Below are positions 41,392-51,233 of a stretch of 64,000 nucleotides of DNA, in pieces (the stretch's first letter is position 1; every line of letters starts with the position of its first letter). The stretch lies in NCBI GenBank assembly GCA_028697145.1, contig JAQVFR010000001.1, forward strand, positions 1-64,000. Reading direction: 5' to 3'. The translations under genes and the position numbers were made by a program. The DNA is from Actinomycetota bacterium (GTDB lineage Bacteria > Actinomycetota > Geothermincolia > Geothermincolales > RBG-13-55-18). A model generated the notes under the pieces. The model was given only the letters and a program-made list of their open reading frames with translations, had not been told where the DNA came from and ran no database searches.

Positions 41392-41431
41392 ACCGCGCCG
41401 CCCTCCGGCGCACCGTGCGAGGAGGCGCGGT
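41392..41431 (+). other. Stable hairpin after hflX, possible terminator
   Basis: Perfect 8-bp arms ACCGCGCC (41392-41399) and GGCGCGGT (41424-41431) enclose further inverted segments (CGCA/TGCG). No T-run follows. Confidence 0.5.
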
Positions 41432-41435
41432 GAGT

Positions 41436-41464
41436 TTGAACACCGGCAGGTGTTACTATTATCT
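41436..41464 (+). promoter_or_regulatory. Promoter candidate of the GGDEF gene
   Basis: TTGAAC at 41436-41441 and TTATCT at 41459-41464 (17-nt spacer) or TATTAT at 41457-41462 (15-nt spacer), just after the hflX hairpin. Confidence 0.55.
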
Positions 41465-41528
41465 AATGAGCCCGCCGGGCCACGGTAAGGCGGGCCTGGG
41501 GGCGACGGAAACAGGAGCGCGCAAGCAT

Positions 41529-43700
41529 ATGGGAATGCCATCTTCGTTGGGGGCATCCAGCCGGGGCTTCAAGGGGGAGACGCAGGGGCCGGAGCGCGGC
41601 TCATCCGAAATATACGATCCGCGCCTGCGAGAGTTCGTCTTCCGCGTGATCTTCGCGGCGCTGCTGATCGCCCTGGTGCAGTTGGACCACCTCGACGTCT
41701 TCCTGGGGGGCGAGATCGACTTCTTCTCCCTCTACATCCTCGCCGGCGCGTTCCTTGCCTACGCGGTCATCGCCTATTTCTTCCATGACATCTTCAGCCT
41801 GAGGGGGCCGCACGCCTGGGCAGTGAGCATCATCGACGTCTTCAGCCTCTGCGCCGCGGTGTACTTCTGCGGGGGCATCGAGAGCTACACCTTCCTCTTC
41901 CTGGGAACCATCCCCCTCATCGGGGGCATGTATCGCGGCTACAAGGGGGCAAGCTACGCCTGCGCCCTCTGCCTCATCGGCTTCACCGCCATCGTCGTCC
42001 TCGACCGCCAGCAGCCCCCCGGATACAACGTCGCCCAAGCCGTTGCCATCCGCTACGCTTATATAATCGCCGCCACCGTCGTGAACATACTCGTCGTGGA
42101 CCTCATGCTCAAGGACCGCAACCGGCTGAAGATCTTCTACGAGATAAGCCGGAGCTCCAGCAAGAGCCCGGCGCTCTACAACGTGCTCAAGGAGATAACC
42201 CAGCGCATGGCCGAGTTCATGAGAGCGGAGGTGGCGCTGGTTTTCCTCTACAACGAGGAGTCCGGCACACTCGATGCCCAGCAGCCCTCACTGGGGCTGG
42301 ATTTCATGAGCACGGCCAGGCTCAGACTGCAGGCCGATACGCCCGGGGTCCTGTCCAGTTGTTTCCGCAACGACAAGCCTCTCCTGGTGACGCGCCGCCT
42401 TTCACGGGAGGTGGAGATCTCTCCCTTCGCCCCGGGCTACAACGTGTTCGACATGTTGGCCAGCCCGCTCGTGGCGCGCGGCAGGACCATCGGCCTCATC
42501 GTGATGGCGAACAAGCTCAACCGCCGGGGCTTCAACAAGCACGACCTCGCGCTGACAGAGCTCATAGCCCCCCATATCTCCGTTTTCCTCGATAACGCGC
42601 TTCTCTACCGGCGCAGCGAGGAGAAGGTGGCGCAGCTGACCAGCCTCATCAGGGTGATCGATGCCATCAACACCGTCTCCAGTCTCGACCAGCTGTACAA
42701 CCTCGCCATGGACGTGATCCGCGGCCTCTTCGCCGTGGAGAAGGCGCTGATAAACATCATCGACTACCGCGTTGAGCTCATGGAGACGGTGCGCAGCTTC
42801 GGTTACAGCGAGGAGTATATCACGCGCCATCTCAGCCACCCCTTCGAGGCGATAAACGAATGCTATGTGATGCGCCATGACGAGACCTTCCTGTGCACGG
42901 ACGTGGCGTCCGACCTCCGCTGCCCGAACATGCTCGTGGACCCGGAGTCCCATTCCGTGCTGTGCGTGCCCATCCGTTCCGGGAAGAACGTCTACGGCAT
43001 ACTGCACATGGCCAGCCGCTACCAGAACGCCTTCGACGAGGAGGACGCCGCGCTCGCCAATGCCATCGGGGAGCAGATCGGCATGGTGGTGGAGAGCGCG
43101 AGGCTCTTCGAGGAGATCAACCGCCTCGCCATCACCGACGACATGACCGGCCTGTATAACATCAGGTATCTCAGAAGGGTGCTGGGCGAGGAGGTCAAGA
43201 GGTCGATCCGCTACAACCGCCCGCTTTCCTTCATCATGCTGGATATAGACTTCTTCAAGATATACAACGACAAACACGGTCATCCCCGCGGAGACGAGGT
43301 GTTGCGCATACTAGCGGGCCTGCTGCAGCAGAACACCCGCGACGTCGACACCGTGTTCCGCTACGGGGGAGAGGAGTTCTCGGTGATCATCCCGGAGGTC
43401 GGCAAGCAAGAGGCATACGCGATGGCGGAACGTATACGGCGCGTGGTGCAGGAGCACCTTTTCCCGTACGAGGAGGATCAACCCGGGGGCAACCTGACCG
43501 TGAGCATCGGGGTTGCAAGCCTCCCGGACGACGCCCAGGAGGGGGAGGAGCTCGTGGATAAGGCGGACCGCGCCCTTTACCGGGCCAAGCAGAGCGGGCG
43601 CAACCGCGTCAGCCTCTATGATCCGTCCGAAGACAGCATATCCCTGCCCATGCGTTCCCACGCCCCCCTGCGCCAGCCTCCGCCTCCGCCCGACGGCTAG
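41529..43700 (+). CDS. Membrane diguanylate cyclase with two GAF domains
   Basis: A 723-aa sensor protein. About six transmembrane helices (roughly 41640-42110) form an N-terminal membrane sensor; two GAF-like domains follow; the C-terminal GGDEF domain has the active GGEEF motif. A RxxD inhibitory site (RDVD) lies exactly five residues before it, so the cyclase should be active and feedback-inhibited by c-di-GMP. A Pro-rich tail ends the protein. The start is uncertain: ATG 41466 is next to the promoter, ATG 41529 has GGAG about 12 nt upstream. A c-di-GMP effector candidate lies about 6 kb downstream (49548-49856). Signal unknown. Confidence 0.92.
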   Translation: MGMPSSLGASSRGFKGETQGPERGSSEIYDPRLREFVFRVIFAALLIALVQLDHLDVFLGGEIDFFSLYILAGAFLAYAVIAYFFHDIFSLRGPHAWAVSIIDVFSLCAAVYFCGGIESYTFLFLGTIPLIGGMYRGYKGASYACALCLIGFTAIVVLDRQQPPGYNVAQAVAIRYAYIIAATVVNILVVDLMLKDRNRLKIFYEISRSSSKSPALYNVLKEITQRMAEFMRAEVALVFLYNEESGTLDAQQPSLGLDFMSTARLRLQADTPGVLSSCFRNDKPLLVTRRLSREVEISPFAPGYNVFDMLASPLVARGRTIGLIVMANKLNRRGFNKHDLALTELIAPHISVFLDNALLYRRSEEKVAQLTSLIRVIDAINTVSSLDQLYNLAMDVIRGLFAVEKALINIIDYRVELMETVRSFGYSEEYITRHLSHPFEAINECYVMRHDETFLCTDVASDLRCPNMLVDPESHSVLCVPIRSGKNVYGILHMASRYQNAFDEEDAALANAIGEQIGMVVESARLFEEINRLAITDDMTGLYNIRYLRRVLGEEVKRSIRYNRPLSFIMLDIDFFKIYNDKHGHPRGDEVLRILAGLLQQNTRDVDTVFRYGGEEFSVIIPEVGKQEAYAMAERIRRVVQEHLFPYEEDQPGGNLTVSIGVASLPDDAQEGEELVDKADRALYRAKQSGRNRVSLYDPSEDSISLPMRSHAPLRQPPPPPDG

Positions 43701-49508: not shown

Positions 49509-49547
49509 CAAGGTTGACTAGGGCGATGACCACAAGGAGGATCGCGG

Positions 49548-49856
49548 ATGAACGGCGAGAACGGAAAGACCAGGGAAGTCCCTCCACATGAGGTTTACAT
49601 CGACTACAGCAACAAGGACGACGAGGAGCTGCGCCGCATCCTGGAGGAGCTCCTGAAGGAGGAGAGAAAGATCTCCTACCAGCGCAGGGTGCTGCACGGA
49701 AAGATAGACATCCTCCGCGCCGAACTGGTGAGGAGGAAAAAGAGCGGCCTCAGGGAAGGAAAGACGTTGATCAGCGACGCGGACATTGACAGGCTGAGCG
49801 AGATCCTCGCCAGCGAGGCCCTCGGCATGCCCCGCAACGACCCCACCACCGATTGA
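49548..49856 (+). CDS. rsiG: RsiG-like anti-sigma factor with c-di-GMP-binding motif
   Basis: A 102-aa helical protein. Residues around 38-55 read EERKISYQRRVLHGKIDILR, fitting E-x3-S-x2-R-x3-(Q)-x3-D, the motif by which Streptomyces RsiG binds c-di-GMP; His stands where Q is usual. RsiG sequesters sigma WhiG when c-di-GMP is high. Streptomyces RsiG has two motif helices; this one has one, as described for the homodimeric Rubrobacter protein, a possible ancestral form. AAGGAGG precedes ATG 49548. No sigma factor gene is in the window. Family membership is recalled from motif and length, not searched. Confidence 0.8.
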   Translation: MNGENGKTREVPPHEVYIDYSNKDDEELRRILEELLKEERKISYQRRVLHGKIDILRAELVRRKKSGLREGKTLISDADIDRLSEILASEALGMPRNDPTTD

Positions 49857-49920: not shown

Positions 49921-50010
49921 AGAGCGCTACGCGACATGGGCGACGATGAGGATTGCCGGGGGTCGAAAACCGAACCCGCACGCGAGTACCGTTGGAAGGA
50001 GGCATGTGCC

Positions 50011-50487
50011 GTGTTCTGTACCAAGTGCGGACATTATAATCCGGAGGGCAGTGTATTCTGCTCCCGCTGCGGAGCCCACTTCGAGCCGGGAGAGGCGCAG
50101 GGCGAAGAGACCACGCTGGGGCTTCCTGCCGTGGAAGCGGAGGTCGAGGACGAAGTCGAGATAGCGCTGCCCACGGAACCCCTGGAGGAAGGGAGCGCCA
50201 TGCTGATGGTCAGGAAGGGCCCCGACGCGGGCATGCGCTTCGTGGTCAATCGCGACATCATCGTCATAGGGCGGCACCCGGAGAGCGACATCTTCCTCGA
50301 CGACATCACGGTGTCACGCCGGCACGCCGAGATCCGCCGCGAGGTGTCCGGCTTCACCCTCCTCGATACCGGTTCGCTCAACGGCACCTATCTCAACCGC
50401 GAGCGCATCGAGGTATCCTCTCTCAGCAATGGCGACGAGATACAGATCGGCAAGTTCCGGCTTCTCTTCCTCGCAGCGGCGGGATAG
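50011..50487 (+). CDS. garA: Zinc-ribbon FHA-domain protein (GarA-like)
   Basis: A 158-aa protein. N-terminal zinc ribbon CTKCGHYN...CSRCG, then an acidic linker with EETTLGLPA (resembling the phosphorylated ETTS motif of GarA), then an FHA domain (GRHPESDIFLDD, SRRHAEI, LDTGSLNGTYLN). In mycobacteria GarA is phosphorylated by Ser/Thr kinases and switches 2-oxoglutarate metabolism; its FHA then binds its own phospho-Thr. The extra zinc ribbon differs from GarA. GTG 50011 has AAGGAGG at 8-nt spacing; the upstream frame to 49936 is rejected. The next gene is ftsR, as in Mycobacterium. Confidence 0.88.
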   Translation: MFCTKCGHYNPEGSVFCSRCGAHFEPGEAQGEETTLGLPAVEAEVEDEVEIALPTEPLEEGSAMLMVRKGPDAGMRFVVNRDIIVIGRHPESDIFLDDITVSRRHAEIRREVSGFTLLDTGSLNGTYLNRERIEVSSLSNGDEIQIGKFRLLFLAAAG

Positions 50488-50501: not shown

Positions 50502-51233
50502 ATGGAAGAGCAAAAAGACAGGATGAGCATCGGAGAACTCCTGAAATCCCTCAAGGAGGAATTCCCCGACCTGACCATATCCAAGGTCAGGTTTCTGGAG
50601 AGCGAGGGCCTCATAGAGCCCGAGAGGACGCCATCGGGGTATCGCAAGTTCAGCCAGGCCGACGCCCAGCGCCTGAGGTTCATCCTCAAGCTCCAGCGGG
50701 AAAAGTACTTGCCCCTCAAGGTGATCAGGGAGAAGATCGGCGAGCTGGAGAGCGGAAAGATGCGCGCCGGAGACCTGGTGCCGGGCATGCTCGGCTCCCT
50801 GGAGGTGGGGGAGGATCTCGTGGCGTACGACGACTCCACCCTGCTGCGCGCCGATGTCCAGCAGGTGCTGGGCATCGATCCCTCCTTCGCCGAGACCCTG
50901 GAGGAATTCGGGCTGATCCGCTCCCACGACGGCGACGAGGGCCCATATTTCGATAAGGAAGACGTAAAGATCCTCCGCATCGCCAGGGAGTTCTCCCGTT
51001 ACGGCCTCGAGCCGCGCCATATGCGCATGTACGAAAACCTCACCGATCGCGAGGCGTTATCCTTCGAGCAGATCATAGCGCCCACCCTCAAGTCCAAGGA
51101 CCCGGAGGTCAGGCGCAAAGCCCTGGACAACCTGCTGCAACTGGTCAATCTCTCGCGCGAACTTAAAGACCTCCTGCTCAAAAACAGGGTCAAGGAGTAT
51201 TTCCTCAAGTCCAATCAACCTGTCCCGTTCTGA
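50502..51233 (+). CDS. ftsR: MerR-family regulator FtsR-like
   Basis: A 243-aa MerR-type DNA-binding protein. The N-terminal winged helix (MSIGELLKSLKEEFPDLTISK...) recognises DNA; it lacks the C-terminal effector and Cys motifs of metal sensors. It resembles the actinobacterial regulator of ftsZ (FtsR; Rv1828 next to garA). It starts 15 nt after garA, so they form one operon. A role in cell-division control is inferred from synteny. Confidence 0.88.
   Translation: MEEQKDRMSIGELLKSLKEEFPDLTISKVRFLESEGLIEPERTPSGYRKFSQADAQRLRFILKLQREKYLPLKVIREKIGELESGKMRAGDLVPGMLGSLEVGEDLVAYDDSTLLRADVQQVLGIDPSFAETLEEFGLIRSHDGDEGPYFDKEDVKILRIAREFSRYGLEPRHMRMYENLTDREALSFEQIIAPTLKSKDPEVRRKALDNLLQLVNLSRELKDLLLKNRVKEYFLKSNQPVPF

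What the first reader, a model, noticed from the sequence alone, without database searches (positions are those of the whole stretch)
49548..49856. Single-motif RsiG-like c-di-GMP anti-sigma candidate near a diguanylate cyclase
The 102-aa protein has E-x3-S-x2-R-x3-H-x3-D, nearly the RsiG c-di-GMP motif (Q replaced by H), in a single helix. A single motif helix suggests the homodimer seen in Rubrobacter RsiG. A membrane GGDEF protein with an I-site is 6 kb upstream. Together they suggest a c-di-GMP to sigma-factor switch in a deep actinobacterial lineage.
Basis: partly seen in the sequence, partly recalled or inferred. Interest (0 to 1): 0.75.

Follow-up and report, generated by a model that had tools for sequence, protein, structure and literature searches.

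The report
Single-motif RsiG anti-sigma in Geothermincolia
The small gene encodes an ancient kind of RsiG, a protein that, when loaded with the signal molecule c-di-GMP, should grip and silence the sigma factor WhiG; the same genome has a matching WhiG whose likely targets include its type IV pilus genes, so the find extends a known switch to deep actinobacterial lineages where it had not been reported.

Summary
The 102-aa ORF (49548-49856 +) matches Pfam RsiG far above the curated cut-off. Its best solved-structure relatives are the RsiG chains of Streptomyces and Rubrobacter. The motif is E39-S43-R46-H50-D54. Histidine is not an exception: all 78 close relatives with an intact motif carry it, and a published His variant binds c-di-GMP.

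The genome encodes one clear WhiG. It keeps the three sigma2 residues that touch c-di-GMP, and T and R of the Rubrobacter sigma4 contacts. RsiG and WhiG co-occur across 296 genomes (194 both, 6 RsiG only, 17 WhiG only, 79 neither). WhiG-type promoters are enriched in the family. One precedes a pilB-pilT-pilC operon in 11 of 12 orthologous loci. No flagellar FlhA was found.

Beyond the 2021 description: distribution reaches Geothermincolia, environmental Coriobacteriia, Aquicultor and Subteraquimicrobium; single-motif rsiG almost always precedes an odhI/garA-like FHA gene and ftsR (93 of 95 loci; twin-motif 0 of 15); two Thermoleophilia carry an independent tandem RsiG.

The nearby diguanylate cyclase is linked only in the closest relatives. 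This is a new member of a known kind; biochemistry is untested.

The parts
49548..49856 (+). rsiG: single-motif RsiG-family c-di-GMP-dependent anti-sigma factor, 102 aa
   Evidence: PF22802 62.6 bits; PDB RsiG 6pfj/7lq4/7lq2, E about 1e-8
49534..49540 (+). ribosome-binding site AAGGAGG, 7 nt before the ATG
   Evidence: sequence
49662..49709 (+). c-di-GMP-binding motif E39-x3-S43-x2-R46-x3-H50-x3-D54
   Evidence: E, S, R and D invariant in 35 aligned relatives, H in at least 90%; contact roles from PMC8325347
49620..49757 (+). [quoted passage not shown]
   Evidence: AlphaFold, block pLDDT 95-97 over residues 21-60; dimer inferred from Rubrobacter RsiG
49776..49820 (+). predicted C-terminal helix, residues 77-91 (ADIDRLSEILASEAL region), expected to bind WhiG; preceded by Gly67 and Gly71
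   Evidence: AlphaFold; L83, I86, L87 nearly invariant and G71 invariant
49936..50487 (+). FHA-domain protein with zinc ribbon, OdhI/GarA-like; conserved right-hand neighbour
   Evidence: PF00498; OdhI model 161.6 bits, below its cut-off of 200; synteny
50502..51233 (+). ftsR, MerR-type regulator; second conserved neighbour
   Evidence: NF050798 220.6 bits over a cut-off of 150; synteny
41415..43700 (+). membrane GAF-GAF-GGDEF diguanylate cyclase with GGEEF site and RDVD I-site; a possible but not demonstrated signal source
   Evidence: PF00990 163 bits; linkage only in the closest relatives

Best explanation
The gene encodes a single-motif RsiG. Two copies pair head to tail through their long helices. 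Each copy supplies one E-S-R-H-D motif, so the pair holds a dimer of c-di-GMP. In that armed form it sequesters the WhiG-type sigma factor encoded at G000:C12 by wrapping sigma2 and sigma4 with its N- and C-terminal extensions. High c-di-GMP therefore keeps the WhiG regulon off and a fall in c-di-GMP releases it. The regulon probably includes the type IV pilus operon and a membrane sensor kinase with a response regulator, as type IV pili are regulated in Rubrobacter. Shown here: family membership, an intact motif, a partner WhiG with conserved contact residues, phylum-wide co-occurrence, and WhiG-type promoters conserved before the pilus and kinase operons. Inferred: dimerisation, c-di-GMP binding, WhiG binding and the direction of control.
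For: Profile and PDB matches to RsiG. E39, S43, R46, D54, R57 and G71 invariant in 35 relatives. One WhiG at 294 bits, 325 bits to S. venezuelae WhiG against 172 to a FliA. Its K48, G52 and R53 match the c-di-GMP contacts of sigma2, and T-L-R-E in sigma4 matches T237/R239/E240 of Rubrobacter (contacts from PMC8325347). RsiG with WhiG in 194 of 296 genomes, RsiG alone 6, WhiG alone 17, neither 79; Fisher p 4e-47, not corrected for kinship. Exact TAAA-N14-16-GCCGATAA sites: 29 against 2 in the reversed control over 12 genomes of the family. Exact sites precede orthologous sensor-kinase genes in three genomes of two families. T[ACT]AA-N14-16-GNCGATA precedes the pilus operon in 11 of 12 orthologous loci against 3 of 445 background windows. 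No FlhA in the genome. AlphaFold gives the long helix plus C-terminal helix.
Against: No biochemistry. Rr WhiG K243, a sigma4 contact, is E here. The N-terminal side lacks the glycine-rich hinge reported for single-motif RsiGs (C-terminal G67 and G71 are present). The homodimer could not be modelled, and the monomer fold search gave no significant match. The pilus promoter is a variant of the consensus. WhiG also occurs without RsiG in other families of the same class. The 12 pilus loci are related, so they are not independent.
Confidence: 0.85

Rival explanations
1. It is an RsiG descendant that keeps the fold but binds another partner, for example one of the other sigma-70-family factors of the genome, or no longer needs c-di-GMP.
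For: The genome has further sigma factors that match the FliA/WhiG model below its cut-off. The K243 equivalent in WhiG sigma4 is E.
Against: All five motif residues are retained. Co-occurrence with WhiG is near-complete. The sigma2 contact residues are conserved.
Confidence: 0.08
2. Its main output runs through its conserved neighbours: rsiG, the OdhI/GarA-like FHA protein and FtsR form one unit that ties c-di-GMP to central metabolism and cell division, and WhiG control is secondary.
For: rsiG is followed by the FHA gene and ftsR in 78 of 80 nearest loci and 15 of 15 further single-motif loci, across classes.
Against: The odhI/garA-ftsR cluster exists without a constant upstream gene in other Actinobacteria (PMC6683498). 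A 79-nt gap separates rsiG from the FHA gene in the window. Stable neighbourhood can reflect slow rearrangement.
Confidence: 0.06
3. Chance motif in an unrelated short coiled-coil protein.
For: The motif is short and the protein is rich in charged residues; 40 of 200,000 shuffles reproduce it.
Against: Curated profile match, PDB matches, conserved C-terminal helix and conserved neighbourhood.
Confidence: 0.01

Closest known systems
Single-motif RsiG of Rubrobacter radiotolerans (PDB 7lq2, 7lq3, 7lq4; PMC8325347)
   Same: One E-S-R-[Q/H]-D motif on one long helix, C-terminal WhiG-binding helix, small size, WhiG partner, pilus operon behind a WhiG-type promoter; the same rsiG-FHA-ftsR neighbourhood occurs in loci with Rubrobacter-like RsiG (L147, L151, L160).
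   Different: H instead of Q; longer linker between coiled coil and C-terminal helix; WhiG sigma4 K243 is E; another class, Geothermincolia.
RsiG of Conexibacter woesei (Thermoleophilia; PMC8325347)
   Same: Single motif with H, published Kd for c-di-GMP 25 uM alone and 1.7 uM with WhiG.
   Different: Different class; no structure.
Twin-motif RsiG of Streptomyces venezuelae (PDB 6pfj, 6pfv)
   Same: Homologous motif helix and C-terminal helix, WhiG partner.
   Different: Two motifs in one monomer; gene not next to the FHA gene and ftsR in 15 twin-motif loci; WhiG position 239 is A, not R or K; controls sporulation.

Membership tests
RsiG | Sequence match to the RsiG profile | tested here: met
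   PF22802 62.6 bits, cut-off 27
RsiG | E(X)3S(X)2R(X)3[Q/H](X)3D motif on a long helix | tested here: met
   E39 S43 R46 H50 D54 inside predicted helix 25-70
RsiG | Partner WhiG encoded in the same genome | tested here: met
   TIGR02479 294.2 bits at G000:C12:4409-5086
RsiG | Partner WhiG keeps the residues that contact c-di-GMP | tested here: met
   K48, G52, R53 in sigma2; T and R in sigma4; K243 replaced by E
RsiG | Antiparallel coiled coil carrying two motifs (homodimer when single-motif) | tested here: inconclusive
   Monomer helix predicted, no dimer modelling available; a natural tandem relative (L077) resembles 6pfv, Foldseek prob 1.00 but E 0.014
RsiG | Glycine-rich hinges on both sides of the coiled coil (single-motif forms) | tested here: inconclusive
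   C-terminal G67 and G71 present, N-terminal hinge glycines absent (sequence)
RsiG | Binds c-di-GMP and, so armed, WhiG | not testable with these tools
   needs purified proteins
WhiG (partner sigma factor) | FliA/WhiG family, closer to WhiG than to flagellar FliA | tested here: met
   325 bits to S. venezuelae WhiG against 172 to FliA; no FlhA in the genome
WhiG (partner sigma factor) | Flagellar-type promoters (TAAA-N15-GCCGATAA) before plausible targets | tested here: met
   29 exact sites against 2 control in the family; conserved before kinase and pilus operons

The most novel reading that the evidence does not exclude
The ancestral actinobacterial switch sat in a fixed unit rsiG-odhI/garA-ftsR, so that c-di-GMP, 2-oxoglutarate metabolism and cell division shared one locus. 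The Streptomyces-type twin-motif RsiG left that unit. A second, independent tandem duplication to two motifs arose in place in some Thermoleophilia, so the homodimer-to-monomer step happened at least twice.
Probability: 0.25. Interest if true: 0.6.

Novelty: new member of a known kind. Interest (0 to 1): 0.45.

Why it matters
RsiG-WhiG was described in 2021 as the only known sigma/anti-sigma pair controlled by c-di-GMP, and its single-motif form was known from five proteins of two classes. Finding it in Geothermincolia and several other deep lineages, with a matched WhiG and a pilus regulon, supports the view that the single-motif switch is ancestral and that surface structures were an early target. 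The conserved neighbourhood and the independent tandem RsiG give testable material on how a symmetric homodimer becomes a monomer.

Tried and rejected
NCBIfam has no RsiG model that matches. The pattern TCAAG-N14-GYCGATA, taken from the pilus promoter, is not clearly enriched genome-wide: its 23 hits over 20 genomes are mostly unrelated places, so it is not proposed as a general consensus. WhiG sigma4 position 239 first looked like a marker of motif number: R or K in 39 of 39 single-motif genomes, A in 12 of 12 Streptomyces-type twin-motif genomes. The tandem Thermoleophilia keep R, as do RsiG-free relatives, so it follows lineage rather than motif number. Fold search with the monomer model was uninformative, as expected for one helix. 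The exact promoter before folC (C46:55650) lies near the end of an upstream ORF and was not pursued. Two alignment calls failed on coordinates, and a Pfam call on the tandem proteins failed for the same reason.

Full report
What was checked. The ORF 49548-49856 is present, has a good ribosome-binding site and encodes 102 residues with E39, S43, R46, H50 and D54. Pfam assigns it to RsiG (PF22802) at 62.6 bits against a cut-off of 27. The best solved-structure relatives are RsiG of S. venezuelae and R. radiotolerans, at E about 1e-8. The motif is the only one in six frames of the window.

Histidine at the Q/H position. The 2021 paper reports that Q is frequently H in the first motif of twin-motif RsiGs, and that the single-motif RsiG of Conexibacter woesei has H and still binds c-di-GMP (PMC8325347). 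Q appears in loci whose RsiG resembles that of Rubrobacter (L147, L160).

Lineage. The nearest relatives (71-77% identity) are Candidatus Solincola and other unnamed Actinomycetota MAGs, followed by environmental Coriobacteriia, Aquicultor, Subteraquimicrobium and Thermoleophilia. A tree groups the window with the five nearest, including Geothermincolaceae, with 98/92 support. The published survey found single-motif RsiG only in Rubrobacteria and Thermoleophilia. No other paper in the held library mentions the single-motif form, but most subscription journals are not in that library.

Partner. The genome has one sigma factor above the FliA/WhiG cut-off, at G000:C12. It lies between a xerC-like recombinase gene and an rpsB-like gene (read from the ORFs). 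It scores 325 bits to S. venezuelae WhiG and 172 to a FliA. Residues that contact c-di-GMP in the Rubrobacter complex are K53, G57 and R58 of sigma2, and T237, R239 and K243 of sigma4. The equivalents here are K, G, R, T, R and E. The genome has no FlhA, so a flagellar role is unlikely.

Co-occurrence. In the same 296 genomes of the phylum, PF22802 is found in 200 and a FliA/WhiG match at E up to 1e-50 in 211. Comparing the lists by hand gives 194 with both, 6 with RsiG only, 17 with WhiG only and 79 with neither (Fisher p 4e-47). The p value ignores kinship. Ten sampled genomes of the same class, in other families, have WhiG without RsiG, so WhiG can occur without its anti-sigma.

Targets. 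The flagellar/WhiG consensus TAAA-N14-16-GCCGATAA occurs exactly 29 times in 12 genomes of the family, against 2 for the reversed pattern. Exact sites precede orthologous membrane GAF-PAS histidine kinases in the window's genome, in another genome of its genus and in a genome of another family of the order. In the window's genome a response-regulator gene follows. Exact sites also precede a B-box-like zinc-finger gene in four genera and a chain-length-determinant-like gene in two genomes of the genus (the last two descriptions are read from the sequences). The type IV pilus operon on C23 runs from three Roadblock genes through a DUF4388 gene, a Ras-like GTPase gene, pilB and pilT to pilC, pilM, pilN, pilO and pilin-like genes (named from sequence). 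A T[ACT]AA-N14-16-GNCGATA site lies 120-235 nt upstream of its first gene in 11 of 12 orthologous loci, while 3 of 445 background windows hold one. The window's genome has two such sites in tandem. Outside the sites much of the upstream DNA is diverged. In R. radiotolerans the same kind of promoter drives pilus genes.

Neighbourhood. rsiG is followed by an FHA gene (OdhI/GarA-like, below the OdhI cut-off) and ftsR in 78 of the 80 nearest loci and in 15 of 15 further single-motif loci. None of 15 twin-motif loci, Streptomyces-type included, show it within about 1.5 kb. The odhI/garA-ftsR pair is known to be conserved in Actinobacteria, and the region upstream of it was described as variable (PMC6683498). 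That rsiG is its usual upstream neighbour in single-motif lineages appears not to have been reported, within the papers I could search. The diguanylate cyclase is linked in L016-L019 only. In L020 the flank ends before its expected place.

Structure. AlphaFold with 35 sequences gives one long helix, residues 25-70, and a C-terminal helix, residues 77-91. This matches the anatomy of Rubrobacter RsiG, but a monomer cannot test the dimer. Two Thermoleophilia (L077, L087) carry an ORF with two complete RsiG copies, the two halves 55% identical over 71 residues, at the ancestral locus. A model of L077 finds S. venezuelae RsiG as its first match (probability 1.00, E 0.014, TM about 0.4-0.5). That is indirect support for the paired-helix arrangement. 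Both halves fall among Thermoleophilia in the tree, though with weak support.

Verdict. This is a single-motif RsiG with a matching WhiG in a lineage where the switch had not been described: a new member of a known kind. Confidence is about 0.98 that it is an RsiG homologue, 0.85 that it works as a c-di-GMP-armed homodimeric anti-sigma of the C12 WhiG, and about 0.6 that type IV pili are a principal target. These are my estimates. Dimerisation, ligand binding and direction of control are inferred from the characterised relatives.

Noticed in passing
L077:7689-8306 and L087:7710-8306 (Thermoleophilia): Tandem RsiG: two full copies, each with its own motif and C-terminal helix, in one ORF at the rsiG-FHA-ftsR locus; looks like a duplication independent of the Streptomyces-type twin-motif RsiG.
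   Followed up: partly
G111 (f45) and G062 (f35): Six and five RsiG-profile matches in one genome, which suggests an expanded RsiG family in these lineages.
   Followed up: no
Whole-genome sample, WhiG sigma4 position equivalent to Rr 239: R or K in all 39 single-motif genomes examined, A in all 12 Streptomyces-type twin-motif genomes; the tandem Thermoleophilia keep R.
   Followed up: yes
L133:2397-4079 - (G000:C23): PilB of the pilus operon carries an MshEN domain, a domain known to bind c-di-GMP in other ATPases, so the pilus may be under c-di-GMP control at two levels.
   Followed up: no
49936-50487: The OdhI/GarA-like FHA protein has an N-terminal zinc ribbon and an ETT sequence reminiscent of the GarA/OdhI phosphorylation site.
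   Followed up: no
L124:114-1874 (G000:C49): GAF-SpoIIE phosphatase with a C-terminal anti-sigma-type ATPase domain, next to an anti-anti-sigma-like (STAS-like) ORF, close to the WhiG-type promoter of the sensor kinase; possible second partner-switching system.
   Followed up: no
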